This document shows, piece by piece, positions 21,063-61,170 of a stretch of DNA of 64,000 bases. Made by a program: the position numbers and the translations under genes. Under the pieces are notes generated by a model. It was not told the DNA's origin, searched no databases, and saw nothing but the letters and a program-made list of their open reading frames with translations. The DNA comes from Thermococcus litoralis DSM 5473 (GTDB taxonomy: Archaea > Methanobacteriota_B > Thermococci > Thermococcales > Thermococcaceae), in NCBI RefSeq assembly GCF_000246985.2, contig NC_022084.1:1002191-1066190 (forward strand), given 5' to 3'. Position 1 is the stretch's first letter; each line of letters starts with the position of its first letter.

Positions 21063-24000
21063 AGAAGCAGCTCCTTTAGAAGATATAATAAAAGAAGAAC
21101 AAAGAGAAGAAAAACCCAATGCCAAGGAAGAACTATCTCCAACTGTGCCAGAAATTAAAACTCCTTCAAGATCCTTATCTGCTGAGAGCAGGGGAGGGAG
21201 TAGCTTAGAGGAGATATTGAAGTCCACAAGAGGCTCACCAAGAGTTCCCATCCCTACATATTATGGAGAGGAAGTGAAGGTTCTTGATGTATATGGAAAT
21301 GTGAGGATCCTTAGAGTTAAGGGAGAACCGATCCCAATTTATGAAATACGCCTTCCAAAATTGAGTGAAGAGGAAGAAAAACTCGTGAAAATCGTTAGGG
21401 ATAGGGCAATTGCAGAGATACAAATAGACCCCGAGAGCATTCCCGATCCGGAGGAAAGGAGGAGAATATTTGGGAGGGTTGTAAAAAACATAATGCGCGA
21501 ACTTGCCCCTGCTATTTCTGAGGCAAGGATGGAAATTCTTGTAAATATGGTTGTCCAGAACATGATAGGTTATGGAAAACTTGATCCCCTCGTTAGGGAC
21601 GATAACTTGGAAGAAGTTATGGTTATAGGAACAAGAAGACCAGTATACGTGTGGCACAGAAAGTTTTACATGTGCAAAACCAATATCGTTTTTGATGATG
21701 AGAGGGAGATATTAAACATTATTGAACGTATAGCAAGGCAGGTTGGGAGAAGAATTGATCAGCAAACCCCGCTCTTAGATGCTCGTTTGCCTGACGGAAG
21801 TAGAGTAAACGCAACTATTAGGCCAGTTAGCTTAGATGGGCCTACGTTAACCATAAGAAAATTCAAAAAAGATCCCCTTACGATAATTGATCTCTTGAAG
21901 TATGGCACCTTTAATTTAGAAATAGCATCTCTGCTTTGGGTTTTTGTTGACGGTCTTGGAGTTAAGCCCGCAAACGTCCTTGTTGCCGGAGGTACTGGTT
22001 CGGGTAAAACTACCACTCTTAACGCATTGGCAATGTTCATTCCTCCAAGTGAGCGTGTTATAAGTATTGAAGATACTGCAGAACTTCAATTGCCAATTGA
22101 GCACTGGGTAAGGCTTGAAACAAGGCCTCCAAACATAGAAGGAAAGGGAGAAATAACCATGGATGATCTCGTTAAGAACACCCTAAGAATGCGTCCAGAT
22201 AGAATTATCGTCGGTGAGGTCAGAGGTCCTGAGGCAAGAACGATGTTCACGGCAATGAATACAGGGCATAATGGAGCGCTTTACGACTTCTCGGTTATTC
22301 AGCTCTCTAATGGGAAATTCGTGCTTATAGGAGATTTGGTTGAGGAACTCTTCAAGAAGTATTCTGATAGAATTGAGACATATAAAGACCTTGAGTACAT
22401 AGTACTCGATGAAAAAGATCGCTTTGAGGTCGTTAGCGTCGGCCCAGACCTAAAAGCGGGTAAGCATATTGTTTCAAGAGTTTGGAGAAGGAAAGTCAGA
22501 GAGGGAGAAAGGCTGATGCGCATAAAGACAAGAACGGGCAATGAGGTAATACTTACCAAGACTCATCCATTCTTTGTATTCTCCAAGGGGGATGTCGTTA
22601 GGAAAGAGGCGGAGAAGCTTAAAGTTGGAGATAGGGTTGCTGTAATGATGAACCCTCCTAAGCCGCCTCAGCGCAGGGCAATTGTGGACCCCAGCATTTA
22701 TGTAAAAATAAGTGATTACTATCTCGTCCCCAATGGAAAGGGAATGGTAAAAATTCCTAATGAAGGTCTTCCTCCTGAGAAGGTCCAATATCTGTCATCG
22801 GTAAATTCACACCATGTGAAGTTGGTTAGGGAGGTTAATGAAAAGCTCTCATATATCGCTGGAGTTATTCTTGGCGATGGATATATATCATCGGGGGGAT
22901 ATTACATTTCAGCTACATTTGACGATGAAGATTACATGGAGGCGTTTGTAACTGCGGTTTCGAAGTTTGTACCTAACTACGTACCCCGCATGAAGAATGA
23001 TGGAAAAAGCACAGTTGTAACTGTTGGTTCGAAGATTTTCGCTGAAATGCTTTCTAGGATATTCGGAATACCTAAGGGTAAAAAATCTGGGATATGGGAT
23101 GTTCCGGATGTTGTTCTCTCAAACGATGAGCTCATGAGGTACTTTATAGCTGGGCTCTTTGATGCCGATGGATATGTGGATAAAAACGGACCCTCCATAA
23201 TTTTGGCTACTAAGAGCGAAAATGCAGCAAGAAAAATCTGGTATGCTCTCCAAAGGCTGGGGATAATAAGCACAGTCTCCCGTGTAAAGAACAGGGGCTT
23301 CAAAGAGGGCGAAATATTTAGGGTAATCATAAGTGGAGTTGAGGATCTTACTAAATTCGCAAAATTTATCCCTCTATGCCATTCAAGAAAAAGGGCCAAA
23401 CTTATGGAAATCTTAAACACCAAGAAGGCATACCGTGGAAGAAAAACATACAGAGTTCCGATATCGAGTGAAATGATAACTCCCATCCGCCGGAGGTTAG
23501 GACTGACAATTGCAGAGCTTTCAAAGTTAGCTTCTTATTACGCAGGGGAAAAAGTTTCTGAGGGCCTTATCAGACATATAGAAAAAGGAAGAGTTAGAGA
23601 AATAAGGCGTTCTGCACTTAAGGGAATAGCCCTTGCTCTTCAGCAGGTGGCCAAAGACATCGGTGATAAAGAAGCTTGGGTAATGGGGAAGAGACTCCAA
23701 CTGCTAGCCGAAGGAGATGTCTATTGGGATGAGGTTGTAAGTGTTGAAGAAGTTGACCCGAGAGAGCTAGGTATTGAATACCTCTATGATCTCACGGTAG
23801 AGGACGACCACAATTATGTAGCCAATGGAATACTGGTTTCCAATTGTATGGGTACAATCCACTCTAACTCTGCCAGAGAAACAATCGTAAGGCTTGAGAG
23901 TCCACCTATGAACGTTCCAAGAATCATGATTCCTGCTTTGGATGTTATCATAATGCAGGTAAGGTTCAACAACAGGAAGAAAGGAACAATAAGAAGGATT

Positions 24001-24339
24001 ACCGAGATAGCTGAGGTTTCCGGAATAGAGGGAGAAAGCGTTCAGCTGAACACTATCTATAAGTACAATCCAGCAAAGGACGAGCTTTATCACACGGGAG
24101 TTCCGAGTAGAGTTCTGAACCAGCTTGCTGAGCATACAGGTTTAACAATGGATGAGCTCCTAGAGGAAAGGATAAAGAGAGAAGTTGTCCTCCAGTGGAT
24201 GGTAGAGAAGGGAATAAGAAGCATAGAAGAGGTCGGGCACTACATTAGAGAATTCTACATTGATCATGAAGAGTTGCTGAGAAGAATAGAGAGGGATGCC
24301 TCAATTGAGCTAACTGAGAAAGTTAGAACAGTCATCTAG
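20998..24339 (+). CDS. KlbA/GspE type II/IV secretion ATPase containing an intein
   Basis: Hexameric motor ATPase for a Tad/Epd-like pilus or secretion system. The precursor has 1113 residues and the spliced protein 590. An acidic N-terminal region (1-110) and N-domain are followed by Walker A GGTGSGKT (331-338), the Asp-box region, and Walker [10 protein letters not shown]. The His-box [10 protein letters not shown] comes after the intein (residues 427-949). The start may be GTG 20998 or, with better SD spacing from GGTGAG, TTG 21004. It lies upstream of two TadC-like membrane proteins. The conserved [12 protein letters not shown] stretch before the intein identifies the KlbA family. Confidence 0.93.
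22276..23844 (+). mobile_element. Ala1-type KlbA intein with LAGLIDADG homing endonuclease
   Basis: A 523-residue intein inserted in the ATPase between TGHNG and CMGTIHS. It begins with Ala (ALYDFSV) instead of Cys or Ser and ends in VSN before Cys+1. Block B is TKTHPFFVF. The two endonuclease motifs are [13 protein letters not shown] and [12 protein letters not shown]. Block F is [14 protein letters not shown] helix-turn-helix-like segment ([15 protein letters not shown]) lies between the endonuclease and the C-terminal splicing block. The insertion site and Ala1 match class 2 KlbA inteins, which splice by direct attack of Cys+1. All blocks look intact, so splicing is expected. The penultimate residue is Ser rather than the common His. 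Confidence 0.93.
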
Positions 24340-24350
24340 GGTGAGAAGAT

Positions 24351-25412
24351 TTGGGGATAAAAGAGAAAATACTTAAATTCATTGAAAGGCTGGGTGAAAA
24401 AACCATAGAGGTTAGCGAACGCCCTATTTCAAGAATTCCTAAAACCCTAACGCTCCAAGAGAGACTTCAACTCCTGAAAAAACTTCAAGAGGAAGTCTCT
24501 CAGGAGAGAGAAGAAAAATACGAAAAAGAACTTGAAGAGATTGTCGAATGGAGAAAAAGAGAGCTAGAGGAATCTTTCACCCATAGATTCTCAGAATTTA
24601 TGCTTAGGCACTTTAGAGGTCCGGTTGAATCATTTACAAAGTCTCTAAAGGGACTCGACTATGATCTCGTGAGGGCTAACATTAAAATGAGTAAAGAGCA
24701 GTTCGTTGCATTGATGCTGGGTGTTTCCATTTTCACTGCAATTTTTGCTTTTTTAATGGGCGTTCTCCTCCTCATGCCAGCTGACATCTCCCTGATGCTT
24801 GGGATACTTGGCTTTATTGGTGGTTTCCTGTATATGAGGAACTACCCAAGGATAGTCTGGCGGAGAAGGGTTGTAGAGGTAGAAAAAGCCCTTCCATATG
24901 TTTTGAGACACATGGCATCGCTCTTAAGTGCTGGAGTTGGTATAGCTGAGGCAATGGTATCGGTTGCCAATGCGGATTATGGACCCATATCCGAGGAATT
25001 TGACCTCATGATAAGAGACATGCACGGAGGAACATCCTTTGAAGATGCATTAATGAGGTTTGAGGAGAGAATGGCATCCGAAAACGTTAGTAGAGTTGTA
25101 AAGCAGATCCTTAGGGCCACAAAATTCGGTGGAAACTTGGCGGATATCCTCTACAAACTTGCCGAAGACTTTTCCTTTGAATACAGAATGAAGCTTGTGG
25201 AGTACATCCAAAAGGTGAACGGTGTTGCCTTTGTCTATATGTTCATAACCATAATAATGCCAACGCTATTTGTTGTGGCGATACTGGCTGCTTCATTAAT
25301 GACCAGGGCGTTAGTAATGCCCGTCCAAGGGTTAGCTGTTATCCTGCTCTTTGGGTTCCCAGCTATTTCAACCCTCGTCGTGTTTATGATAAAACGTAGT
25401 GAACCGAGGTGA
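24351..25412 (+). CDS. TadC/T2SSF-type pilus platform protein 1
   Basis: Membrane platform subunit partnering the KlbA ATPase, 353 residues. A charged cytoplasmic N-terminus (1-110) is followed by a T2SSF domain with two TM helices (about 122-165), a helical cytoplasmic bundle (LPYVLRHMASLLSAGVGIAE), and two further TM helices at the C-terminus. The TTG start is backed by GGGTGAG six bases upstream. It starts 11 bases after the ATPase gene. In FlaJ two such halves are fused. Here they are separate genes, as in Tad systems. Confidence 0.88.
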   Translation: MGIKEKILKFIERLGEKTIEVSERPISRIPKTLTLQERLQLLKKLQEEVSQEREEKYEKELEEIVEWRKRELEESFTHRFSEFMLRHFRGPVESFTKSLKGLDYDLVRANIKMSKEQFVALMLGVSIFTAIFAFLMGVLLLMPADISLMLGILGFIGGFLYMRNYPRIVWRRRVVEVEKALPYVLRHMASLLSAGVGIAEAMVSVANADYGPISEEFDLMIRDMHGGTSFEDALMRFEERMASENVSRVVKQILRATKFGGNLADILYKLAEDFSFEYRMKLVEYIQKVNGVAFVYMFITIIMPTLFVVAILAASLMTRALVMPVQGLAVILLFGFPAISTLVVFMIKRSEPR

Positions 25413-25418
25413 TTAAAT

Positions 25419-26339
25419 TTGGCTGAAATTAAATTCCTCCGACCTCTTGCAAAGGCTCTTGAAAAACTACTCCCCACAAGGTGGGTCAGAAGGTACGAGC
25501 TCTTCCTGTACTCAGCGGGAATATCATTTTTAGCGCTTGAATTTTTGTTGGTATCTTTATTGCTGGCAGGGTTGGTCGGGATAATAGCTTTCATACTGTC
25601 CCCTGTTAAGATCTATGCTCTCCCGGTGTTCCTCGGTTTGTTTTTAGGGATTGCATGGGTTTATCCCTATTATTTGCTGACCAAGAAGATAGAAGACATG
25701 GAGAAAAACTTGCCCGATGCTTTCTTCTATCTTGCGAGCTCTTTGAGAGCTGGAGTTTCTTTCTCTGAAGCTTTGGAAGAAGCATCAACTGCAAGGTTTG
25801 GAGCATTAACAGAGGAATTCAAAAGAACAGTACAGGAGATAAAGAAGGGTAGAGCAACAATAGAAGCCCTGAGGGCTTTTGCAGTAAGAAACAAGAGATC
25901 TTCGGTAATTTATCGCTCCACAATGATTATCATAGAGGCTTATGAGAGAGGAGCCCCAATGGCTGATGTACTTGTGGCGGTTGCCAACGACGTCCGTGAA
26001 ATACTGAGAATAAAAAAGGAGAGGAAAGCCTCAACCGGAATGCAAGCAATGTTCTTTATAATTGCAAGCGGCTTCATAGGGCCATTCATCCTAGGGGTTG
26101 TATCCCAGATTATGGGTGGCATGAACACTCCTGAAGTGGGACTTAATTTGCCGTTAGAAGCGATAAAAAACGTTTCTCTTGCGTTTGTGGCAATACAAGC
26201 TATAGTTTCGGGGTTAGGAATTGGAATAATAAGAGAAGGAAAGTTCTCTGCAGGCTTCAAGTACAGCGCAATGTTGGCTATACTCGGAGTTGTGATATTC
26301 CTTGTGGCTACCAGGGTTCAGATATCAGGATTCATCTGA
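25419..26339 (+). CDS. TadC/T2SSF-type pilus platform protein 2
   Basis: Second platform subunit, 306 residues with four to five TM helices flanking a T2SSF domain (LPDAFFYLASSLRAGVSFSE, then RAPMADVLVAVANDV-like helices). The TTG start follows GAGGTGAT by five bases. Six bases separate it from the first TadC gene. No prepilin or prepilin peptidase is encoded in this operon. The gene ends 15 bases inside the convergent FKBP gene. Confidence 0.88.
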   Translation: MAEIKFLRPLAKALEKLLPTRWVRRYELFLYSAGISFLALEFLLVSLLLAGLVGIIAFILSPVKIYALPVFLGLFLGIAWVYPYYLLTKKIEDMEKNLPDAFFYLASSLRAGVSFSEALEEASTARFGALTEEFKRTVQEIKKGRATIEALRAFAVRNKRSSVIYRSTMIIIEAYERGAPMADVLVAVANDVREILRIKKERKASTGMQAMFFIIASGFIGPFILGVVSQIMGGMNTPEVGLNLPLEAIKNVSLAFVAIQAIVSGLGIGIIREGKFSAGFKYSAMLAILGVVIFLVATRVQISGFI

Positions 26340-49358: not shown

Positions 49359-49685
49359 ATGGCTCTTCATATAAACCCACACATATTGCGCTCCCTTCAT
49401 AGAAGTGAGCTTCGGCGTCGAATATTGCTCTATCTATATCAGCTCTACCCTTCTGCTACTTATCTTTCGGAGATAGCAAGGGTGGTCGGTTCTGATCCAT
49501 CAAACGTTCGAGGAGCCCTTGTGGGGCTTGGCAATAGATACAATGGTGAAAGTTCTCTCGTGTATCTAGGACTTGTTGAAGAAATTTCTAATAATGGCTT
49601 TAAATACTATAGGCTCACGGAATATGGAAAGAAAGTAGTAGAATATCTTAAATCTTACTACACTTATTACCGAAAATTTATGTGA
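49359..49685 (+). CDS. earA: EarA-like winged-helix regulator of the archaellum operon
   Basis: A 108-residue MarR/ArsR-like winged helix: recognition region YLSEIARVVGSDPSNVRGALVGLG, wing with SSLVYLGLVEEISNNGFKYYRLTEYG. Size, fold and position directly ahead of the fla genes match the euryarchaeal archaellum regulator EarA, which activates fla transcription in Methanococcus. The match is by recall and context, not by alignment. GGGGGT precedes the ATG. Ten bases separate it from the methyltransferase gene. Confidence 0.75.
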   Translation: MALHINPHILRSLHRSELRRRILLYLYQLYPSATYLSEIARVVGSDPSNVRGALVGLGNRYNGESSLVYLGLVEEISNNGFKYYRLTEYGKKVVEYLKSYYTYYRKFM

Positions 49686-49695
49686 GGTGGACATA

Positions 49696-50655
49696 ATGAA
49701 CGTATCTCTGATTGAGACACTGGATACAAATCTGCAAGTTATGATAGATACTGCCCTCCTTTATACTATGCAGGTTGGCATGAAATACAACGTCTTTAAG
49801 GCTCTTTCGGAGAAAGATACGAGAAAGGCTCTTGAAGAGATAGAGATTCAAAACAAAAGTCTTCTAGAGAAATTTCTCAAAACATTAAATGAACTTGGAG
49901 TTGTTCATGAAACTTCAGAAGGACCCAGATTAAATCGATTTTTTTACGAGGTAAAGATTTTTAGAGAGAATTACAAACAGATAATCCCTGATTGGATAAA
50001 ATTTTTAGAAAAAATATACGAAATGGTAGATTATGCTTTTATAACTGCAGACCATCCTTATGTGTCTATGGATTTTGACAAAGACGCTGATTTTTGGGAC
50101 ATGAGGATGAAATCGAACTTTGCATCCCTATATCGAAAAATAATAATTGATCTCGGTAAAATCTCTTCAAACACAGAGATAATCGATATTGGATGCGGCT
50201 CAGTTTCTCCTATAGAGTTTGCCGGGCAGATAGGACCTAATGGGTATTACCTTGGTGTGGACTATTCTTCAGCTCTTTTAGAAATAGCCAAGTCGAGAGT
50301 AGAAGAAAAGGGCTACGATTGGGTATCTTTAAAAGAAATTGATGCACGCTTGATAAAACCTTCCCATAGATACGATGTAGCTGTACTTAGCTTTGTCTTG
50401 GAGTACATTAATGACAGAAGAAGAGTTATAAAAAGGGCAGTTGAATCTTTAAAAGAAGGCGGTAAGATTATTATAATTGAACCGTTCAGAGATAGTTTCG
50501 AAAATCTCCCTGCATTGGAATTTTTTGAAGGCTTGAATAAGGATTTTGTTGGATATCCAACTAGGGCTGAAATATCTACCATACTAGAAGAAGAAGGTTT
50601 TGACGTTAGTGTGGAGTCTCCAGGTAAGGGTGTTATGGTTATACGGAAACTTTAG
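49696..50655 (+). CDS. SAM-dependent methyltransferase between earA and flaB1
   Basis: A 319-residue class I methyltransferase. The N-terminal helical/winged-helix domain (LYTMQVGMKYNVFKALSEKD) is of the type used for dimerisation in small-molecule O-methyltransferases. The Rossmann domain has motif I EIIDIGCGSVSPIEFA, acidic loop YLGVDYSSALLEIAKSR, and LSFVLEYINDRRRVIKRAVESLKEGGKIIIIEP. ATG 49696 is preceded by GAGGTGG. The target is unknown: archaellin residues, the N-glycan, or a regulator are all possible given the position. Confidence 0.8.
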   Translation: MNVSLIETLDTNLQVMIDTALLYTMQVGMKYNVFKALSEKDTRKALEEIEIQNKSLLEKFLKTLNELGVVHETSEGPRLNRFFYEVKIFRENYKQIIPDWIKFLEKIYEMVDYAFITADHPYVSMDFDKDADFWDMRMKSNFASLYRKIIIDLGKISSNTEIIDIGCGSVSPIEFAGQIGPNGYYLGVDYSSALLEIAKSRVEEKGYDWVSLKEIDARLIKPSHRYDVAVLSFVLEYINDRRRVIKRAVESLKEGGKIIIIEPFRDSFENLPALEFFEGLNKDFVGYPTRAEISTILEEEGFDVSVESPGKGVMVIRKL

Positions 50656-50716
50656 CTGTTTTTACGTTTTATTCTTTCAAAAATTTTGTCACTTTTTGGT
50701 CGTGATTAACCTTTCC

Positions 50717-50773
50717 TACACCTATACCTACATATTCAAATACACAACTAAAAACAAAAAAACCATTTATAAT
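50717..50773 (+). promoter_or_regulatory. flaB1 promoter with three 12-base-phased TACA repeats
   Basis: TACACC (50717), TACATA (50729) and TACACA (50741) begin exactly 12 bases apart, followed about 20 bases on by the TATA box TTTATAAT (50766-50773). TACATA is, as I recall it, the hexamer reported for Methanococcus EarA binding. The predicted start near 50796 leaves a short leader with GGAGGTG at 50809-50815. Confidence 0.55.
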
Positions 50774-50823
50774 TCAACTTTTTTAGATTACAATTGAAGA
50801 ACTTCCAAGGAGGTGCCTTGGTA

Positions 50824-51771
50824 ATGAAAGTTAGAACAAGAAGAGGTGCTGTTGGTATTGGCACCTTGATAGTGTTTATTGCCATGGTGCTGGTGGCTGC
50901 AGTTGCTGCAGCAGTGCTCATTAACACCAGCGGGTTCCTCCAACAAAAAGCCTCCAGCACAGGCAGACAGACAACACAAGAAGTAGCAAGCGGTGTTAAA
51001 GTTACCAGCGTCGTTGGTTATGTTCCAACCAACGGAAATAAAATCACAAAACTTGCAATTTATGTCTCACCAAACGCAGGAAGCTCAGGAATAGACTTGC
51101 TTAACACGAAGATTGTGCTCTCAAATGGAAGTGTTGAGGCTCTCCTCAAATACGGAGGTGCTAACATTACCGGACTAAACATTGCAAACTTCACCTCTGG
51201 AGGCTACGTATATGCCAATGCAACCCAGTTTGCAAGTGCACTTGGATTAACAGAGTACATTCTTAATGCTGCATCCCTCTCAAGTCTTGATTCATACTAC
51301 GTCAACATGAGCAAATTACAGGCAGATGGCATACTCCAATTTGGCCAAGATGCAACAAGTGGAAACATTACCTGGATATACTTCAACAAACCACAATTCA
51401 CAAAGGGACCAATCCCAGGCATCTTTGATGGAGGCATTGACTACACAAGTGATACCTCACTTCAGATAGTAAATAGTACCCTAACCCAAGAAGCAGCAGT
51501 TTCATGGCCAGAGTTCGTTTGGAAAGCACTTGATGCTACTAGATTTGGTGTAATTGGAATACAGGACTATGATGAATCACTCCAAAGAGACACCCCAACC
51601 ATCAATCAAGGAGACATAGCTATCTTAGGCGTTGACGTTGAGGCGCTGTTCAATGGTATTCCAGTAAGAACAAAGATTACAGGTGAAGTTATTCCCGAAT
51701 TCGGCGCTCCTGCTGTAATTGACTTCACAACACCAAGCACATACACCGATAACGTGGTAGACTTGCAGTGA
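50824..51771 (+). CDS. flaB1: Archaellin FlaB1
   Basis: Major archaellum filament protein, 315 residues. The class III signal peptide MKVRTRRG is cleaved before [21 protein letters not shown] by prepilin peptidase FlaK. The conserved hydrophobic helix and [22 protein letters not shown] follow. The C-terminal beta domain has sequons (NIT, NFT, NAT, NMS) fitting N-glycosylation, and the [20 protein letters not shown] tail is typical. ATG 50824 has GGAGGTG upstream. First structural gene after the phased-repeat promoter. Confidence 0.96.
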
Positions 51772-51837
51772 AGCTTTTTATGGTTTCATTCATAAATTTT
51801 TTGAGTTTTTTATTTATGCTTTTAAGGAGGTGAAAAA
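51772..51837 (+). terminator. T-tracts between flaB1 and flaB2
   Basis: Three T runs (T5 51775-51779, T6 51797-51802, T6 51806-51811) sit in the 66-base gap. Euryarchaeal RNA polymerase can stop at such U-tracts without a hairpin, so partial termination here would make flaB1 mRNA exceed downstream fla mRNA. GGAGGTGA for flaB2 follows at once. Confidence 0.4.
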
Positions 51838-52596
51838 GTGAAAAGGCAAGGTGCCGTCGGCATTGGAACGCTGATAGTCTTCATTGCCATGGTATTGGTA
51901 GCTGCAGTTGCTGCAGGAGTGCTTATAAGTACAAGTGGTTACCTTCAGCAGAGAGCGCAAGCGGCTGGAAGGGAAACAACTCAAGAAGTCTCAAGTGGTA
52001 TAAAAGTACTCCACGTGTACGGATATGTAAACGGCACAGTACCGAGTGGTAAGAATATAACAAGAATGGTAATTTACGTCTCTCCAAATGCCGGCTCAGG
52101 GGGTATTGATCTCAGCAACGTCAAAGTAATGCTCACAAACAATGACCGCATGGTTGTTTACACTTATCCAAATGCCTCTGCCTTGAACAATGGAACGTTC
52201 TTTTACAAAGGGCCAATTATGGACGTGTTTGGCGGGGAGGTAGAGAACAAGTTATCATCAATAAATAGCTACAACACTACCAATAATGTTACTTCCCTCT
52301 GGGAGAACTTGGCATACTTGACAAAAGACGAGAAAATTCCCGCCTTTGGCATAATAGTAGTCCAAGATTCCGATGGAAGTTTAGTCAAAGAACATCCAAC
52401 ACTCAGCTGGGGAGATATAACAGTAATAGCTCTATGGACGATTCCATTTGATAACGACGAGGATCCATTAGACGGTTTTGGAATTCCTCCGAGTACTAAA
52501 GTAATCGGAAAGGTAATTCCAGAAACGGGAGACGATGGTGATATTGAATTCGTAACTCCTGCAACATACACAACAAAAATCGTTGAACTACAATAA
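51838..52596 (+). CDS. flaB2: Archaellin FlaB2
   Basis: Second archaellin, 252 residues, GTG start with GGAGGTGA upstream. Signal peptide MKRQG precedes [22 protein letters not shown], nearly identical to FlaB1 over the helix. The outer domain is about 60 residues shorter and shares the end motif [20 protein letters not shown]. Sequons NGT, NIT, NAS, NVT are present. It probably forms a minor or proximal part of the filament. Only two archaellins are encoded here, whereas some Thermococcus species carry more. Confidence 0.95.
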
Positions 52597-52607
52597 CGGT
52601 GGTTAAA

Positions 52608-53087
52608 ATGGCACTTGAATTTCTTTCATCTCTTTTTAGCAAAAAGAAAAAGCAACCTTCAGTGAGTGAAAGCGAAACGGAGGAGCTAATAGATGAGCTT
52701 GAGGAGAGAATGGAGAGAAGAGAAGAAGAGGAGATGATAAATCAAGTAATGGAAAGGCTCAGCGAAGTTGAAAACGAAGTTCCAAGAATAAAAATAAGTA
52801 TTGACACACTGAAAAAGCAGTTTCAGGAAGTGAGGGAAGATATTGAAAGACTAGAAAAGACCATAAAGGACATTATGATGCTGTATGAAGTTATTTCCCA
52901 GGAAATCAACCCTTTCAAAGAGCAACTGATGCAAGAAAACCCCCTTTCACAAGAACTACATGAAGTGAAGCAAGAGATCGAGAGCCTCAAGATGGAACTT
53001 GCCCAAATAAAAAATGACATAAGAGTATTAGCAGGCTATGGTGTTGATATTGATTCAATAATATATGATGTTCTCTCGGAGGTGTAG
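52608..53087 (+). CDS. flaC: Archaellum accessory protein FlaC
   Basis: Cytoplasmic switch-complex subunit of 159 residues (ATG 52608 after GGTGG). An N-terminal MALEFLSSLFSKKKK is followed by a long acidic coiled coil and the FlaC core EISPF-like VISQEINPFKEQL. FlaC with FlaD/E links the motor to CheF and CheY. Three bases separate it from flaD. Confidence 0.9.
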   Translation: MALEFLSSLFSKKKKQPSVSESETEELIDELEERMERREEEEMINQVMERLSEVENEVPRIKISIDTLKKQFQEVREDIERLEKTIKDIMMLYEVISQEINPFKEQLMQENPLSQELHEVKQEIESLKMELAQIKNDIRVLAGYGVDIDSIIYDVLSEV

Positions 53088-53089
53088 GC

Positions 53090-54164
53090 ATGGAGGACGG
53101 GAGGTACATAACAGAGGCAGACATAAATGCCAAGCTTTCAGAGCTAAGAGGAAAAGTACCTTCAGTAGTTATCAATGATCTCAGGGAAAAGCTAATGGCT
53201 AAAAGAGACCAGCTTACCTACGATCAGCTGGAAAAAATAATTCAGAGGGTACTTGATACTTATGGAAGTCAATCCGCTAAGTATGAGCAGATAAGTAAAA
53301 GGGTTGATGAACTGGGCAACAGGCTGGGTGAATTAAGTGCTCAACTTTCGAGATTGGTAGAGAGCTTGGAGGAAGCCAAATTTAATATCCACGAAAAAAG
53401 AGCGGAGGTATTAGAAGAGAAAGTAGAGAATATCAAAGAAAAGCTTGAAAGCCTAGATGAAGAACTAGAAAGTCCAGAAGAAGACAAAAAAATTATTGAA
53501 GTACTTGAGGAAATCCCAGAAAAAATTGAGGAACTACAAGAGAAAATTGAACAGGCTGTGGAAAAAACCCAAAGAGAAGGTTTCTGAAGAAGAGGTACCT
53601 ATTGGGGAAATTAATGAGGAATTTCCTGCTCATGAGAATATTGTTGAAATTGAAGAACTTCCCCAGGAGGAAGTTGAAAAGATGGAAACTTTTGAAACTC
53701 CTGCGGATGTTGCTGAGGGGGGTGAAGTTGAGATGTCAGAAAAGAAGTTTGAAGTTCCAGAGGACATAGCAAGCTTATTATTTGCCGAAGAACCTAAAAA
53801 AGCGAGGTTAGAAACGCTTCCCGAGGACATTGTCTCAACGATGATAGCTCTTAAGTGGCTTGGATTCCTTATAGATAGGGTCGGTATTCAGAACTTGGAA
53901 AGTGTTCTTGAGTTTTACTACGACATCGGGTGGATAAGCGAAAGAGTTCTGAATGCCTTGTTGAGATATGCAAAGGGAACCAGACCTCATCACAGAGACC
54001 CAGAATGGAAGCCTTCTGAGAAGCTTACGGTTCAGGATCACTTAATATCATTGCTCTTCATCGAGAGACTTAGGGGATTAAGAATAACGAGGGATGTACT
54101 TGATAAACTTGAAAGAGAAGTTAAAATCTTAGAGAAAACGCTGGATGAGTTCTACGGGGTCTAA
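53090..54164 (+). CDS. flaD: Archaellum accessory protein FlaD/E, split by a frameshift at A6
   Basis: Switch-complex protein, about 357 residues after repair. The first frame (53090-53587) gives the helical N-terminus and coiled coil. The second (stop 54164) carries the acidic linker and the conserved FlaD/E domain ETLPEDIVSTMIALKWLGFLIDRVG. Dropping one A from 53562-53567 joins QAVEKPKEKVSEEEVP seamlessly. The second frame becomes coding exactly where the first stops. An internal ATG at 53732, with GGGGGTGAAG just upstream, could independently yield a FlaE-sized C-terminal protein. Confidence 0.82.
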
Positions 54165-54182
54165 TGAGATAGGGTGTCGCCA

Positions 54183-54695
54183 ATGGGATTCAGCGTTTCA
54201 GCAAGTACAGCAATTCTCTTTACTTCAATTTTATTGATAGTATCCAATCTATATCTAGCTTGGGAGAACAGCTATGTCCAAGTTAAAGACGCTGAGAGAT
54301 ATTGGTATGATTTAAAAATATCGAGGTTGAGCACTAAGCTTAATTTAGCCTCTCACTCCTACGCAATAGGTTCTGATCATTACAACCTGACCTTAACAAT
54401 TGAAAATAATGGGAATACAGTGAATGTAGATTATTGGAGTGGAATATACGATGGAAACTATGTAACTCTCTTTAATGTTGCTGATGATAACATAGGATTC
54501 CTATCCTCCTCTGAATATTTGCTTCCAAGTGAGAGCACCTCTCTAAACATAACTTTCATTCCTCTAACTACCTCCCAACATACCCTGTGGATATTTGTTG
54601 GAAATGGATGTGGATTAGGTGTAAAGTGGCACTACAATGGAAGTGCTGTGCTTATAGACACCACTTCATGGGTATGTCCAAGCGAGGTGACCTAA
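54183..54695 (+). CDS. flaF: Archaellum stator protein FlaF
   Basis: A 170-residue protein with an N-terminal TM helix (ASTAILFTSILLIVSNLYLAW) and an external beta-sandwich that, in the family, binds the S-layer and anchors the motor. Sequons NLT and NIT are present. ATG 54183 follows AGGGTG; the GTG at 54174 is in frame. It abuts flaG without a gap. Confidence 0.9.
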   Translation: MGFSVSASTAILFTSILLIVSNLYLAWENSYVQVKDAERYWYDLKISRLSTKLNLASHSYAIGSDHYNLTLTIENNGNTVNVDYWSGIYDGNYVTLFNVADDNIGFLSSSEYLLPSESTSLNITFIPLTTSQHTLWIFVGNGCGLGVKWHYNGSAVLIDTTSWVCPSEVT

Positions 54696-55166
54696 ATGGC
54701 CGCAGGTGGACCAGCGTCAGAGCTGATTATGTTTATAGTGGCTATTATTGTTGCCGGAAGTGTTGCAGGTGCATTAGCACATGTTACAAATGATATCGCT
54801 GGGGGTATCAAAATAAGGGGGGAGAGCTTGTCATATAACTTAAAATCAGACGCTGTTATAATAAATGATCCAGAGAACATTCCAGTAGCCGGTACGGGCC
54901 CATATAATTATATATTTTACATAAAAAACGTTGGAAAAGAAAGTATAACCTTTAGCAGCGATGCATTACAAGTATTTATTGATGGAAATATGATACCTCC
55001 ATCGAACCTTACTCTTGTAGATGTCAATAACGCTCCCATTTCCTCTTTAGATCCGTATGAGGTTGGGAAAATTGTAGTTACCACGACTCTCTCTAGTGGA
55101 GCCCACAAACTTGTGATAGTGTTGGAAAATGGAAAGGTGAGAAGCTTTGTATTTCGACTCCCCTAG
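54696..55166 (+). CDS. flaG: Archaellum stator protein FlaG
   Basis: A 156-residue partner of FlaF. N-terminal TM helix (LIMFIVAIIVAGSVAGALA) and an external beta domain with YNYIFYIKNVGKESITF. It starts directly after the flaF stop. FlaF-FlaG filaments form the periplasmic stator-like column in related archaea. Confidence 0.9.
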   Translation: MAAGGPASELIMFIVAIIVAGSVAGALAHVTNDIAGGIKIRGESLSYNLKSDAVIINDPENIPVAGTGPYNYIFYIKNVGKESITFSSDALQVFIDGNMIPPSNLTLVDVNNAPISSLDPYEVGKIVVTTTLSSGAHKLVIVLENGKVRSFVFRLP

Positions 55167-55196
55167 TCAAATAAGTGATAATAGAAGGTGGTTCAT

Positions 55197-55895
55197 TTGG
55201 TCGAGGAAGTCTTTAGAATGGAGCTTAAAGGAGATGAGCTACACAGACGTATTGGAGGTGGGATACCAGCAGGTACAATTATGTTGCTAGAGGGAGATAG
55301 AGGTACTGGGAAGTCTATTTTTGCCCAAAGATTGTTATATGGATTCTTAATGAATGGATATCGTGTTTCTTATGTGTCTAGTCAATACACAACAGTGGAG
55401 TATATTCGACAGATGTTTTCCTTAGGATATGATGTTGTACCATTTTTGATCAGAAAGAAGCTTGTCTTTGTGTCGTTATACCCATTATTAACAGGAGTTA
55501 GTGAAAAGAAAAAGTTTTTAAGCAGATTACTAGGTGAACCAAGACTCTGGGAGACGGATATAATAATAATCGACTCTTTTTCTGCTCTACTCTCAAGAGA
55601 GCAGGATTTAGATGCTGTTAGAAACTTTCTTATGTATATAAAGAAGCTTGCGAGTTTAGATAAGGTAATAATCCTTACATCAAATACCGAAGAAATAGAT
55701 AGGGAATCATTGTTTTTGTTGGAAGAAGCCGCTACAATGCTAGTTAGGTTACAAGTAAAGGTATTTGGTGGTGATTTGAAAAATTCTGCGATTATTGTGA
55801 AGTACAACAATGCTAAAGGTGTTTTTCAGAAGATAATACCATTCAGAGTAGAACCCAAGGTGGGATTGGTAGTAGAAATAGCAGCGGTGGTGTGA
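55197..55895 (+). CDS. flaH: Archaellum RecA-like protein FlaH
   Basis: A 232-residue ATP-binding KaiC/RecA-like protein that docks on FlaI and regulates motor assembly. Walker A is GDRGTGKS (33-40), Walker B region TDIIIIDSFSAL. TTG at 55197 is chosen because AAGGTGG lies just upstream. GTG 55188 is in frame. It precedes flaI by one base. Confidence 0.92.
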   Translation: MVEEVFRMELKGDELHRRIGGGIPAGTIMLLEGDRGTGKSIFAQRLLYGFLMNGYRVSYVSSQYTTVEYIRQMFSLGYDVVPFLIRKKLVFVSLYPLLTGVSEKKKFLSRLLGEPRLWETDIIIIDSFSALLSREQDLDAVRNFLMYIKKLASLDKVIILTSNTEEIDRESLFLLEEAATMLVRLQVKVFGGDLKNSAIIVKYNNAKGVFQKIIPFRVEPKVGLVVEIAAVV

Positions 55896-55896
55896 A

Positions 55897-57531
55897 ATGG
55901 CTCAAAAATTGAATGATACACTAGAAGACGCAATGAGAAGAAACCCCCATTTGAGAAAATATGTTGAACAGTTTAGAAAAAAGTATGGAAAAATGCCTGA
56001 ATTTCACCCCCAATTAAGCAGAGATATGAAGGAACTTCCCCAGCCCAATATAATTTATCCAGTTGGGGATCCAATTTTCATTCATATATATGGGGATGCC
56101 CAAACCGATAAAAAATATATTGTTATTGAACCTAAGATTGAAACAAGAGAGGAAGAAGAAAAATATGAGGTAATAAAGAACAAAATTCTGGAATTGGCAC
56201 CATTTAAGGACATTCCGGAAGATGAAGAAGAATTTGAAGTGTTTTTAGACAATATTTTTGAAGAAGCGGTTTTTTCTTTACTTAAATCCTCTAAGAGTCC
56301 TTTAAAACGCAGTTCACCTCTAATTTTAACACGTGAGGAAATGGAAAAGTTTAGGTATTTAATAAAGAGGGACATAATAGGTATTGGACCTCTTGAAGCT
56401 CTTGCGAGAGACCCCTATATTGAAGACATTCACATAATTGGGGCCAATTATGTTTCTCTTGTTCACAAGATTTTTGAGGCACTTCCAACCAATATTTCCT
56501 TTGGAGATAATATAAAGCTTGCAGACTATTTGAAAAACCTCAGTGAGCGTATAGGAAGACCTGTTAGCGATAGACATCCAATTGTAGATGGCACTCTTCC
56601 AGATGGTTCAAGAATTAACATAATATATAGTCCAGATATAAGTCTCAAAGGTCCCAGTGCAACAATAAGAAAATTCTCGGCAACCCCACTAAGCATTACC
56701 CAGCTAATAGCTTGGAAGACGTTAAGTGCAGAAATAGCAGCATATCTATGGCTTGCCTTAGAATATGGTATGAGTGTTTTTATATGTGGAGAAACGGCTA
56801 GTGGTAAAACAACAACCCTTAATGCAATTATCCCCTTCATAAAACCAAACTCCAAAATTTATACTGCTGAAGATACCCCTGAAGTTGTGGCTCCTCACCC
56901 TACATGGCAAAGACTTGTTACTAGGGAGAGAGGTCCAGAGGAGAGCAGAGTTACACTTTTTGATCTTCTTAAGGCTGCTCTAAGATCAAGACCCAATTAC
57001 ATTATAGTTGGTGAGATCAGAGGTGCAGAAGGTGCTATAGCTTTTCAGGCTATGCAGACTGGTCACCCAGTTATGAGTACTTTTCATGCTGGAGATGTTA
57101 AAAAGATGATTCAGAGATTTACTGGGAGTCCTATCAACGTTCCAGTAACTTTTATAGACAACTTAAACATAGCTCTCTTCCAGCAGGCAGTATATGTAAG
57201 AGGTAAATTCCTTAGAAGAGTTCTAACGGTTGTGGAGATTGAAGGGTATTATGAAGAACTTGGCGGAGTAGCAACAAGAAACGTTTTTGAATGGGATCCG
57301 GTTTCAGACGTTCATCATTTCAGGGGGTTCAACAATTCATACATTCTAGAAAGAAAAATAGCCGAAATAGCAGGATATGAAGACCCTAAAGAGATATACA
57401 ACGAGTTGTTCCTAAGAGCAAGGATTCTTCAAAGAATGGTCGAGCTGGGCATTACTTACTATTGGGACGTTTACAGAGAAATCAAAGCTTTTTATGAGAG
57501 GGGCATTGAGGGACTGAGCTTTAGAATCTAG
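55897..57531 (+). CDS. flaI: Archaellum motor ATPase FlaI
   Basis: Hexameric ATPase that assembles and rotates the archaellum, 544 residues. N-terminal helical crown region (1-60), then the N-domain with SDRHPIVDGTLPDGSRINI, Walker A GETASGKT (298-305), Asp box EDTPEV, Walker B YIIVGEIRG and His box STFHAGDV. Unlike the KlbA ATPase in this window it carries no intein. Confidence 0.95.
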   Translation: MAQKLNDTLEDAMRRNPHLRKYVEQFRKKYGKMPEFHPQLSRDMKELPQPNIIYPVGDPIFIHIYGDAQTDKKYIVIEPKIETREEEEKYEVIKNKILELAPFKDIPEDEEEFEVFLDNIFEEAVFSLLKSSKSPLKRSSPLILTREEMEKFRYLIKRDIIGIGPLEALARDPYIEDIHIIGANYVSLVHKIFEALPTNISFGDNIKLADYLKNLSERIGRPVSDRHPIVDGTLPDGSRINIIYSPDISLKGPSATIRKFSATPLSITQLIAWKTLSAEIAAYLWLALEYGMSVFICGETASGKTTTLNAIIPFIKPNSKIYTAEDTPEVVAPHPTWQRLVTRERGPEESRVTLFDLLKAALRSRPNYIIVGEIRGAEGAIAFQAMQTGHPVMSTFHAGDVKKMIQRFTGSPINVPVTFIDNLNIALFQQAVYVRGKFLRRVLTVVEIEGYYEELGGVATRNVFEWDPVSDVHHFRGFNNSYILERKIAEIAGYEDPKEIYNELFLRARILQRMVELGITYYWDVYREIKAFYERGIEGLSFRI

Positions 57532-57541
57532 AGGTGGTGCT

Positions 57542-59251
57542 ATGAGTGACATAAGCATTTTTGTAAAAGCAGATCTTTCAATGAAAAAATACTTAAAGAA
57601 AGTACTTCTACCCACATTGCTACTTTCCATTGTTCTCTTTATAATAGCGTCTATTGTTCCGAGATTTATAGCGCTTCCCCTGGGGCTGAGAATAATTCTA
57701 AACCTTATTCCACTGATAATTTTGATGTACGCTGTTCTATATCCCTACACCACAGCAGATACGAAGAAAATTTCAATTAACTCTAAAATTCCATATTTTA
57801 TTACTTACTTCGCTGTGTTGTCTACGAGCGAAATGTCAAGAGGGGAGCTCATACAAGTTTTGGCAAATGATCCTAAACTTGGTGCAATTGCTAGTGAGCT
57901 TAAGAAGGTGTACATAATAGTGAACAAGCTTCACAGAAGCTTACCTGAAGCATTTAGATTTTTAGCTAGGAGAACACCAAGCAAGGTATTTGCCGATTTT
58001 TTGGATAGATTAGCATACTCCCTCGATAGTGGTGTGGAGCTCAAGGATTATCTATTCCAAGAACAACAAACGGTGATGGATGATTATCAAACATTTTATG
58101 AAGGAGCGTTGTATGATCTTGATGTGTTTAAGGAGATTTATGAATCAATAATTATCTCAGTTGTTTTTATTGCAGCGTTTATAATTATTGGGCCATTAAT
58201 AACAGGCCAAGATGTAGGGCGGCTTGCTATTTACCTTCTCATGATAATATTAAGTGCGGAAATTGGGGTTATGTTTGTGATTAAATATAGAATGCCCGAG
58301 GATCCAATATGGGCTGAAAGAAAAATCCCGACTGAAAGAGATAGAAGAATAAAACGAGCTTTAATGATCTCAATTGGGGGGGTTGTTGTAGTTTTTGGTG
58401 TTTATATACTTGTTCTTAGGCCTAGGTTTGATATCCCATATCCATTTGTAGTCTCTTTGATTCTGACACCCCTGGCTTATGCTGGAAGGGTGATTAGGAA
58501 TGAAGAAGAGGGTATTTTCAGAAAGGATGAAAACTTCCCTGCGTTTATTAGGAGTTTGAGTTCCTCTCTTGCAGCAAGTGGAAGCTCTCTCATTTTTGTA
58601 TTAAAGTATCTAAGTGCTCATGATTTTGGTACCTTAACTCGGGATATAAGAGCTCTTTATAGAAGACTTGCCGTGAGGGTCAGCAATGAGAGAGGATGGG
58701 ACTTCTTTATAGCAGAAACTGGAAGCTGGTTGGTTGGTATATTTTCAGAAATGTTTAGGGAAAGTATAAAACTTGGTGCTGAGCCAGACTATGTTGGTAA
58801 AGTTATTTCAAGAAATTTCGAAAGACTTGTAAGACTCAGGAGAAAAAGACAGCAAAGTATAGCAAGCTTTATTGGGATTATCTATGGCATTACTGGAGCA
58901 TTTGCTTTTTCAATTGCCTCCTCTTTTCAAGTTGCCGTTTCAATAAGCGAACTCTTTGGGAGAATGGAAATCTCTGTTGAGTATCTTGGAGATATAATTC
59001 ATGTCATCCAACCAAGTGGACTTGTATTTTTAACTGGAATAATGCTTCTCCTCATGGTTGTTCATTCTTTAGTGTCTGCTGTTACAATAAAGCTTGCAGA
59101 TGGAGGACATTTAGGAGTTTCTCTGTATTATTTTGTTATCTTGCTTTGGATATTTGCCGTTGGTATGTTCATAGGCCAGACATTAATGGAAAGAATGATG
59201 GGTCTTGGAGGGGGCCAAATGCTGTTAATACTGCTGGAGGGATTGAAATGA
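57542..59251 (+). CDS. flaJ: Archaellum membrane platform FlaJ
   Basis: A 569-residue polytopic membrane protein with two T2SSF domains (around 85-180 and 330-440) separated and flanked by about nine TM helices. FlaI acts on its cytoplasmic loops. Positively charged segments such as RRRTPSKVFADFLDR-like and RLRRKRQQSI are the expected docking surfaces. The last codons overlap the following gene (ATGA). Confidence 0.94.
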   Translation: MSDISIFVKADLSMKKYLKKVLLPTLLLSIVLFIIASIVPRFIALPLGLRIILNLIPLIILMYAVLYPYTTADTKKISINSKIPYFITYFAVLSTSEMSRGELIQVLANDPKLGAIASELKKVYIIVNKLHRSLPEAFRFLARRTPSKVFADFLDRLAYSLDSGVELKDYLFQEQQTVMDDYQTFYEGALYDLDVFKEIYESIIISVVFIAAFIIIGPLITGQDVGRLAIYLLMIILSAEIGVMFVIKYRMPEDPIWAERKIPTERDRRIKRALMISIGGVVVVFGVYILVLRPRFDIPYPFVVSLILTPLAYAGRVIRNEEEGIFRKDENFPAFIRSLSSSLAASGSSLIFVLKYLSAHDFGTLTRDIRALYRRLAVRVSNERGWDFFIAETGSWLVGIFSEMFRESIKLGAEPDYVGKVISRNFERLVRLRRKRQQSIASFIGIIYGITGAFAFSIASSFQVAVSISELFGRMEISVEYLGDIIHVIQPSGLVFLTGIMLLLMVVHSLVSAVTIKLADGGHLGVSLYYFVILLWIFAVGMFIGQTLMERMMGLGGGQMLLILLEGLK

Positions 59252-61170
59252 AAGGGAAGATAATACCCGTGTTTGTTTTCATGCTCTTTTTCCAATTTGT
59301 TGCGGCATCATCTATAGTTGGATGGATTGAAACCCCAGTTAAGATAGAGATTCCCAACTACACCCTCAAGATTGAGGACATATCTCTTGTTGATGGTTCA
59401 ACTTATGTCGAATATTTTACTCCTAATGGCTCTCATCTTCAACTTTTAAAAATTGGTCAGAATCTCTCTGTGGATGATCTCGTTTTCAAAATTCATCGGA
59501 CAATAGTTGGAAAACAAGGTTATGCTTATATCTCTCTTGAATACCCTTATCTGCTTGAGGGTGAAACCATACTATTTGGAAACTACTCGCTATCTTTGCT
59601 ATCTGTCGGTAACAATACTGCCAAAATAAAGTTAAGGATAAACAACGAAAGCAAAGAGTATACGTCAACTGACATTAAATACGATAATCTTCAAGTAAAG
59701 TTAACACCTTATCCAAAAATCTTCTCTGGATATCTTGAAAAGGACGAAACATTTACCTTCCATTCTCATTCGATAACATTTAAAGAGGCATTAATAGAGA
59801 ACATTTCTGGCAAATATAAGAATGTGGTAAAGTTTGTGATAGACAAAGATGAATATGAGGTCCCTGTAGGAGATACCGTTGAAATAGGAATTTTTGTTAT
59901 TTCACCAAAAGATTTAATTGGAGAGAAATACGTGGAAATGGAGGTTTATCTTAAAGGAGCCTATGTTAATGTTTATCTACTCCCTCACTTTGAAAAAACA
60001 TTAAAAGAAAATGAAAATACAAGGATAGGGCCATATTTAGTAGTCCCAGAGTACATTTTCCATTCGCAAGCTTATGTGAGTATAAAGAATCTTTGCGGAA
60101 AAGCCTTAAGTGGAAGCTTTTTATCCGCTGGAAACCATTCAAAGGCACTGACCTATCAGGGGATAGATGTGGGAGTGTTGGATGTTAACTATACCTCTGA
60201 ATCAAAGACAGCTAAATTGATAATATTCGTAACAGATCCCTCTATTCTTACTATGGAGGAACTTATCCCTGAAGTGGAAATATCTCCTGTGATTCCTTCC
60301 AAGATAGTTCAATTTGATGAGGTTCCTTTAAAGATTGTCTTGAAGAATAAGGATCATGTTGATTTAAAGAATGTACGAATTTTCTATGCTCCCTCCTCCT
60401 GGGTAGAGTCAATAGGAGACAACGTGATATATGTCCCAAAAATCGAAGCTGGTTCCTCATATGAAGCTGAGTTTTTGATTAGAGTCAAAAAGTACGGGAA
60501 AATAACTCTTGGCAGTATTAGAGTAATAGCAGAAACCTCTACTGGGTTTGGTTGCAATGAAAATGGAACTATTGAGATTTCACACAGTTCAGTGACAGCA
60601 GCTGTTGAAGAAGCTACGGTAAAGTATGATGTTGACATCTCCGCGCCGGCCAATTTAACACTTGCCCCCTTCGATGTCTCAATACGTATTCAGAATAGGG
60701 GAAATACGAAAACACCTGTACTTCTTAGGATTCCAGTTTCCAAATTTGCAATTATTAATGCAGATTCTTTTACACTAAATGGTTCTAACATAGAGCGCTT
60801 GGTATCTCTTATCCCAAATAAAACGGCAGAATTTAAGATTAGAGTATTTCCTTTAGACTCAACAAATCTTACTTTGCAAGCATATGTTATTTCTAATGGG
60901 AGGATAGTAGGGAAAGATGAAGAGGGGATTACATTTACCCAGGACAAATCTCAAGAAGAATTCCAAGAGCAAAACAGAGAATGTACACCTCAGATCGTTT
61001 ATGTAAATAAGAGCGTGCCAGTGGAAAAAGTAGTTGAAAGAATTGTAAACAATACTGTGGAAGTGCCATACACTCCACTTAAGGCAAAGCTCATATTTTT
61101 GAGTGCCGGATTTTTGCTTGGTTCTGCATTTATCATACTACTAGCATGGATACAATCCCAAAGAGAATAA
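59248..61170 (+). CDS. Large surface protein coupled to flaJ, function unknown
   Basis: A 640-residue protein starting at ATG 59248 inside the flaJ stop. It has a signal peptide (IIPVFVFMLFFQFVAAS), then about 560 residues of beta-rich, probably Ig-like repeats with CARDB/NEW3-type motifs (VQFDEVPLKIVLKNKDHVDLKNV; APFDVSIRIQNRGNTKTPV) and many sequons. A coiled-coil-like stalk (VNKSVPVEKVVERIVNNTVEVP) and a C-terminal TM helix (LIFLSAGFLLGSAFIILLAW) with a short basic tail complete it. It is outside the standard fla set. Its tight coupling suggests an envelope-anchoring or stator-linked role. Confidence 0.8.
   Translation: MKGKIIPVFVFMLFFQFVAASSIVGWIETPVKIEIPNYTLKIEDISLVDGSTYVEYFTPNGSHLQLLKIGQNLSVDDLVFKIHRTIVGKQGYAYISLEYPYLLEGETILFGNYSLSLLSVGNNTAKIKLRINNESKEYTSTDIKYDNLQVKLTPYPKIFSGYLEKDETFTFHSHSITFKEALIENISGKYKNVVKFVIDKDEYEVPVGDTVEIGIFVISPKDLIGEKYVEMEVYLKGAYVNVYLLPHFEKTLKENENTRIGPYLVVPEYIFHSQAYVSIKNLCGKALSGSFLSAGNHSKALTYQGIDVGVLDVNYTSESKTAKLIIFVTDPSILTMEELIPEVEISPVIPSKIVQFDEVPLKIVLKNKDHVDLKNVRIFYAPSSWVESIGDNVIYVPKIEAGSSYEAEFLIRVKKYGKITLGSIRVIAETSTGFGCNENGTIEISHSSVTAAVEEATVKYDVDISAPANLTLAPFDVSIRIQNRGNTKTPVLLRIPVSKFAIINADSFTLNGSNIERLVSLIPNKTAEFKIRVFPLDSTNLTLQAYVISNGRIVGKDEEGITFTQDKSQEEFQEQNRECTPQIVYVNKSVPVEKVVERIVNNTVEVPYTPLKAKLIFLSAGFLLGSAFIILLAWIQSQRE

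What the first reader, a model, noticed from the sequence alone, without database searches (positions are those of the whole stretch)
59248..61170. Uncharacterised 640-residue surface protein translationally coupled to flaJ
The ATG lies within the flaJ stop, so expression is tied to the archaellum platform. Signal peptide, Ig/CARDB-like beta modules, a stalk and a C-terminal TM helix fit a protein reaching from the membrane to the S-layer. It could complement the FlaF/FlaG stator or form a sheath or anchor. I know of no function for it.
Basis: partly seen in the sequence, partly recalled or inferred. Interest (0 to 1): 0.65.

Follow-up and report, generated by a model that had tools for sequence, protein, structure and literature searches.

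The report
Thermococcales-only archaellum-linked surface protein
The last gene of the swimming-organelle (archaellum) gene cluster in Thermococcus and Pyrococcus relatives encodes an uncharacterised, probably sugar-decorated, membrane-anchored surface protein that has been inherited together with the motor genes, and may be a missing link between the rotating motor and the cell's outer protein coat.

Summary
A 640-aa ORF (59248-61170, +) starts with an ATG that overlaps the flaJ/arlJ stop (ATGA). The 4-nt overlap recurs in most orthologues, and a ribosome-binding site inside the end of flaJ precedes 35 of 37. In 94 Thermococcales genomes, 64 carry both genes, always adjacent and on the same strand. 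Only two have a relative without flaJ (a divergent paralogue and a fragmented assembly). In 396 archaeal genomes no full-length homologue lies outside Thermococcales, although ~45 others have an archaellar flaJ. The gene tree mirrors the flaJ tree (r=0.90). Published data show the T. kodakarensis orthologue TK0050 falling with the fla operon. So the archaellum link is strong; the protein was so far only a 'hypothetical protein' (PF0329, TK0050).

Predicted anatomy: Sec signal peptide, compact beta-rich head, two CARDB-like Ig domains, Thr-rich disordered stalk, one C-terminal TM helix, and about three times more N-glycosylation sequons than chance. Best guess: a clade-specific tether or collar between the membrane at the motor and the S-layer, helping ArlF/ArlG. 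That function is inferred, not shown. Ten genomes keep full-length flaJ without the gene (two losses), so it is accessory rather than universally essential.

The parts
59248..61170 (+). the gene: 640-aa predicted type I membrane/surface protein, last gene of the arl (fla) cluster
   Evidence: orthologues
57542..59251 (+). arlJ/flaJ, platform protein; its TGA overlaps the ATG of the target
   Evidence: (PF00482 hits)
59235..59240 (+). GGAGGG Shine-Dalgarno-like site within the 3' end of flaJ, about 7 nt from the ATG; SD-like site present in 35 of 37 orthologues
59248..59307 (+). predicted Sec signal peptide (residues 1-20), AxA-type cleavage; no class III (pilin) motif
   Evidence: sequence; low-pLDDT helix 6-13
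59302..60243 (+). N-terminal beta-rich head (residues 19-332), built partly of related beta units; modelled alone pLDDT 94, pTM 0.86
60250..60945 (+). two CARDB/NEW3-type Ig-like domains (residues about 335-456 and 457-566), related to each other (hhalign 97.5%)
60946..61080 (+). disordered stalk (residues 567-611), Thr-rich across the family
61081..61167 (+). C-terminal transmembrane helix (residues 612-640) with invariant G625 and A633, small residues common at 619-621, short cytoplasmic tail
49359..59251 (+). rest of the archaellum cluster: earA, fam, two arlB, arlC, arlD (frameshifted), arlF, arlG, arlH, arlI, arlJ

Best explanation
The gene encodes a Thermococcales-specific accessory component of the archaellum. 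Shown by computation: it is the last gene of the arl cluster, its start overlaps arlJ, it is co-inherited with arlJ, and the protein is predicted to be secreted, beta-rich, rich in N-glycosylation sequons and anchored by one C-terminal TM helix. Inferred: the TM helix, with an invariant Gly and Ala, packs in the membrane near ArlJ or against itself. The Thr-rich stalk and two Ig domains carry the rigid N-terminal head outward across the wide (about 34 nm in P. furiosus) periplasmic gap. The head contacts the S-layer or the emerging filament. The protein would thus act as a tether or collar at the archaellum base, helping the short ArlF/ArlG stator couple the motor to the S-layer, or holding open the S-layer gap through which the 11-nm filament passes.
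For: Strict adjacency: 64 of 64 genomes with both genes, same strand; co-occurrence with flaJ, Fisher p=7e-9, not corrected for shared ancestry. Mirror trees r=0.90, Mantel 0 of 2000, with the gene following flaJ across two cluster types that cut across genera. Conserved -4 overlap and SD. TK0050 is 6.5x and 5.4x down together with TK0049 (8.1x, 5.9x) in two histone mutants (PMC8155482). Architecture from AlphaFold. Sequons 16 vs 4.8 expected, enriched in all 31 homologues. P. furiosus tomography found a ~34 nm gap, S-layer gaps (<=3.5 nm) too small for the filament, and no identified conduit (PMC5517150).
Against: Ten genomes with a full-length flaJ lack the gene, from about two losses, so a collar is not mechanically indispensable. 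RT-PCR in P. furiosus found no flaJ-PF0329 cotranscript. No S-layer-binding motif or solved-structure match identifies the head (nothing at E<=0.001). My length estimate reaches 34 nm only if the stalk is fully stretched. Tomograms show no density spanning the whole periplasm.
Confidence: 0.42

Rival explanations
1. A co-expressed adhesin or recognition protein: it sits in the polar membrane patch among the archaella and mediates surface or cell-cell contact when the cell is archaellated, without a part in rotation.
For: Archaella of P. furiosus serve adhesion and cell-cell contact (PMC4263178, abstract). The ectodomain evolves about 2.6 times faster than FlaJ, is sequon-rich, and the gene was lost about twice without loss of flaJ.
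Against: The best conserved segment is the TM helix and tail, not an exposed face. A free adhesin would not need such strict coupling to arlJ.
Confidence: 0.25
2. An assembly or quality-control factor: a periplasmic partner of the ArlI/ArlJ export platform that guides archaellins or shields the export site, as its distant relatives may do for ABC-2 exporters.
For: Distant relatives sharing the N-terminal unit and Ig domains are encoded in ABC-2 exporter operons next to ATPase and permease genes; coupling is to the platform gene arlJ itself.
Against: The relationship to those proteins is partial (E about 1e-8 to 1e-19, covering pieces only). Archaella assemble elsewhere in archaea without it.
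Confidence: 0.18
3. A passenger gene: an unrelated surface protein that happens to sit at the end of the operon.
For: RT-PCR in P. furiosus placed PF0329 outside the operon; about two losses.
Against: 64 of 64 adjacency across six genera, transfer with the cluster, co-regulation of TK0050 and conserved coupling are not expected of a passenger.
Confidence: 0.1
4. A sheath or structural part of the filament.
For: It is encoded with the archaellins and is sequon-rich, as the P. furiosus filament is N-glycosylated.
Against: It has its own C-terminal TM anchor and a Sec-type rather than class III signal peptide. The P. furiosus filament model is built of FlaB0 with N-glycans (PMC5517150).
Confidence: 0.04

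Closest known systems
PF0329 (P. furiosus) and TK0050 (T. kodakarensis), 'hypothetical (membrane) protein' at the end of the arl/fla cluster
   Same: Orthologous by position: gene directly after flaJ. The genome whose contig is 2,088,737 bp (the size I remember for T. kodakarensis) has a homologue with the same -4 overlap (L115 14442-16436), followed by a pcm-like gene as TK0051 follows TK0050.
   Different: No function known; previously noted only as a hypothetical gene (PMC4263178, PMC10665913, PMC8155482). PF0329 and TK0050 were not retrieved by name here.
ArlF/ArlG (FlaF/FlaG) periplasmic stator proteins
   Same: Same cluster, beta-rich, membrane-anchored, facing the S-layer.
   Different: ArlF/G are about 155-175 aa archaellin paralogues with an N-terminal helix; this one is 640 aa, C-terminally anchored, Thermococcales-only. 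All three coexist in the clusters.
COG1361-type / 'S-layer-like array' proteins of ABC-2 exporter operons in Thermococcales (COG name from memory)
   Same: Similar layout: signal peptide, N-terminal unit of about 90 aa, NEW3/CARDB Ig domains, C-terminal TM.
   Different: Partial and weak similarity; different genomic partner (ABC-2 exporter); extra carboxypeptidase-regulatory-like domain.
Stand-alone paralogue of about 622 aa (e.g. L048, L047)
   Same: Same length and layout, N-terminal part homologous (E about 1e-26).
   Different: Not near arl genes; also present in G087, which lacks flaJ.

Membership tests
Archaellum (arl/fla) gene cluster component | encoded within the arl cluster, in order and on the same strand, across species | tested here: met
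   64 of 64 genomes with both genes; -4 overlap
Archaellum (arl/fla) gene cluster component | co-inherited and co-regulated with core arl genes | tested here: met
   mirror tree r=0.90; TK0050 down with TK0038-49 (PMC8155482); but no cotranscript in P. furiosus RT-PCR
Archaellum core component (universal) | present in all archaellated archaea | tested here: not met
   absent outside Thermococcales and in 10 Thermococcales genomes with full-length flaJ
Archaellum core component (universal) | required for assembly or swimming | not testable with these tools
   needs a deletion strain
Archaellin / ArlF / ArlG (type IV pilin-like) | class III signal peptide and N-terminal hydrophobic assembly helix | tested here: not met
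   Sec-type signal with AxA site by inspection, C-terminal TM instead
CARDB / NEW3 Ig-like domain proteins | Pfam match over the curated cut-off | tested here: inconclusive
   window protein 12.7 vs 22.7 bits; orthologue L115 27.8 vs 22.7; 21 of 31 homologues at E<=0.1
S-layer protein (Methanosarcina DUF1608 type) | sequence or fold match to the S-layer domain | tested here: not met
   no Pfam hit; 3u2g at E=0.021, TM 0.25-0.28 only
ABC-2-exporter-linked S-layer-like (COG1361-type) proteins | full-length homology and ABC-2 neighbourhood | tested here: not met
   partial similarity only; no ABC genes beside the window gene

The most novel reading that the evidence does not exclude
The protein is a previously unrecognised, clade-specific third element of the archaellar stator or bushing: a periplasm-spanning collar that fixes the motor to, or opens a gap in, the closed Thermococcales S-layer, a step that tomography left unexplained.
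Probability: 0.3. Interest if true: 0.75.

Novelty: new variant of a known kind. Interest (0 to 1): 0.52.

Why it matters
How the archaellum motor braces against the cell envelope, and how the filament gets through an S-layer whose holes are too small, are open questions. T. kodakarensis and P. furiosus have genetics and published cryo-tomography, so a single deletion would test whether this conserved but unnamed gene is part of the answer. The natural losses give a ready comparison set.

Tried and rejected
Pfam, NCBIfam and PDB sequence searches with the window protein gave nothing usable. Foldseek with the full model found only generic multi-domain Ig proteins such as integrins with TM<0.27; the head alone found nothing at E<=0.001, the most suggestive being the Methanosarcina S-layer domain 3u2g, too weak to use. 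Looked for an equivalent long membrane protein directly after flaJ in 20 non-Thermococcales loci: none. The genome-contig scan returned only MAGs, so most genomes could not be named. Considered that the gene is a sheath protein or pilin: rejected on signal peptide and TM topology. Considered that absence in 10 genomes is divergence: rejected, since flaJ is followed within about 50 nt by a pcm-like gene with no room for it and the family profile finds no full-length match there. The T. gammatolerans genome paper gave no statement on archaella, so motility of a likely loss species could not be confirmed.

Full report
What is there. The ORF at 59248-61170 (+) is real and encodes 640 aa. [quoted passage not shown]). 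Its ATG overlaps the arlJ TGA (AATGA) and has a GGAGGG site within the end of arlJ. The next gene (61282, aconitase-X-like by my reading) lies 111 nt downstream. The window's genome is a single 2,215,172-bp contig; from that length and the two arlB genes I suspect Thermococcus litoralis, but names are hidden, so this rests on memory.

Is the link to flaJ more than chance? A search of 94 Thermococcales genomes with the protein finds homologues in 66 and with FlaJ in 76. Sixty-four have both, and in all 64 the two genes are adjacent on the same strand. Twelve have flaJ only (two of these are a flaJ remnant, G020, and a contig end, G064), 16 have neither, and two have a relative without flaJ: G087 carries only a divergent paralogue, G088 is a fragmented assembly. 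Fisher p=7e-9, though related genomes are not independent. In the orthologues examined the start is usually at -4 nt to the flaJ end, as ATGA or GTGA, and an SD-like sequence, typically GGGGGTGAT, lies 3-11 nt upstream in 35 of 37.

Inheritance. The FlaJ tree and the target tree agree (distance correlation 0.90; 0 of 2000 permutations as high). Both split into two deep groups that cut across genera, e.g. the window's own cluster groups with other genera and not with most sampled members of its own genus. The simplest reading is that whole clusters were exchanged between lineages and this gene travelled with them. The gene was lost about twice: once in a clade of nine sampled loci and once in G070, the sister of the T. 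kodakarensis-sized genome G024. In all ten, flaJ is followed directly by a pcm-like gene, and G019, the one read in full, keeps arlB, D, F, G, H, I and J.

Range. A profile search of 396 archaeal genomes finds full-length homologues only in Thermococcales. About 45 non-Thermococcales genomes in the same set carry an archaellar flaJ, and in 20 loci inspected no comparable gene directly follows it. Partial matches elsewhere are mostly Ig-domain matches. The main published census of archaellum genes lists FlaI, H, J, F, G, archaellins and FlaC/D/E; the passages I read do not mention this protein, and its supplementary tables were not open to me (PMC4858521).

Expression. Two published results bear on it and disagree in part. 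In P. furiosus, RT-PCR never found flaJ and PF0329 on one transcript, and the authors excluded PF0329 from the operon (PMC4263178); a later study lists a hypothetical gene after arlJ as part of the cluster (PMC10665913). The same RT-PCR also found flaJ only as a single-gene transcript, so that method may miss long rare transcripts at this end. In T. kodakarensis, TK0050 ('hypothetical membrane protein') falls 6.5- and 5.4-fold in two histone mutants, next to TK0049/flaJ at 8.1 and 5.9 and TK0048 at 7.1 and 6.9 (PMC8155482). That G024 is T. kodakarensis rests on my memory of its length and on gene order (flaJ, target, pcm-like).

Anatomy. AlphaFold with 31 homologues: pLDDT 82.5, pTM 0.56, all-beta 20-565, disordered 567-611, helix 612-639. 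Modelled alone, residues 19-332 form a confident unit (pLDDT 94, pTM 0.86) with no PDB match at E<=0.001. Profile comparison of segments shows related beta units in the first 250 residues and two related Ig domains at 335-566, of the CARDB/NEW3 kind. The stalk is Thr-rich (23%), and the TM helix and tail, with invariant G625 and A633, are the best conserved part. Sequons N-X-S/T number 16 against 4.8 in shuffles, and every homologue is enriched.

How it may work. Tomography of P. furiosus (PMC5517150) gives a ~34 nm gap between membrane and S-layer, an 11-nm filament, S-layer gaps of at most 3.5 nm, and no identified conduit. My rough length estimate is 8-10 nm for the head, 8 nm for two Ig domains and up to 16 nm for the stretched stalk, i.e. 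enough to approach the S-layer only when extended. I therefore favour a tether or collar at the archaellum base (confidence 0.42). An adhesin (0.25), an export-platform partner (0.18), a passenger (0.10) and a sheath (0.04) are the rivals. The losses argue for an accessory role, perhaps matched to a particular S-layer or load.

Relatives. The N-terminal unit and Ig domains recur in proteins encoded in ABC-2 exporter operons, which match NEW3/CARDB models in Pfam and a 'putative S-layer protein' model of NCBIfam below its cut-off. So the archaellum protein looks like one branch of a looser family of archaeal surface proteins that sit beside membrane machines. A stand-alone paralogue exists in several genomes of two genera.

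Verdict. Observation confirmed; archaellum association well supported; mechanism open. The gene was already known as a hypothetical gene at the end of the cluster; what is new here is the quantified linkage, co-inheritance, losses, taxonomic limit and anatomy.

Noticed in passing
window 53090-54164: arlD is split into two overlapping ORFs in different frames (165 and 222 aa). In the closest relative (L102) both halves lie in one frame; the alignment differs by 26 nt of gaps in an acidic linker. Either a real frameshift, possibly affecting motility, or two functional half-proteins.
   Followed up: partly
window 20998-24339: Secretion ATPase gene of a second type IV pilus locus (followed by two TadC-like genes, 24351-26339) carries what looks like an in-frame intein, KlbA-like by memory.
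   Followed up: no
L047 7962-9842, L048, L112, L113, L114: Stand-alone 622-631-aa paralogue of the target in a conserved non-archaellum neighbourhood, also in G087 which lacks flaJ.
   Followed up: partly
L103 4662-6638, L106 4002-5948, L107 5023-6960, L108, L109, L111: Proteins of similar layout encoded in ABC-2 exporter operons; sequence similarity to the target is partial.
   Followed up: partly
Thermococcales flaJ tree: Two deep types of archaellum cluster cut across genera, suggesting repeated exchange of whole clusters.
   Followed up: partly
L045 (G020): Only a 3' remnant of flaJ remains, followed by a pcm-like gene: a decaying archaellum locus.
   Followed up: no
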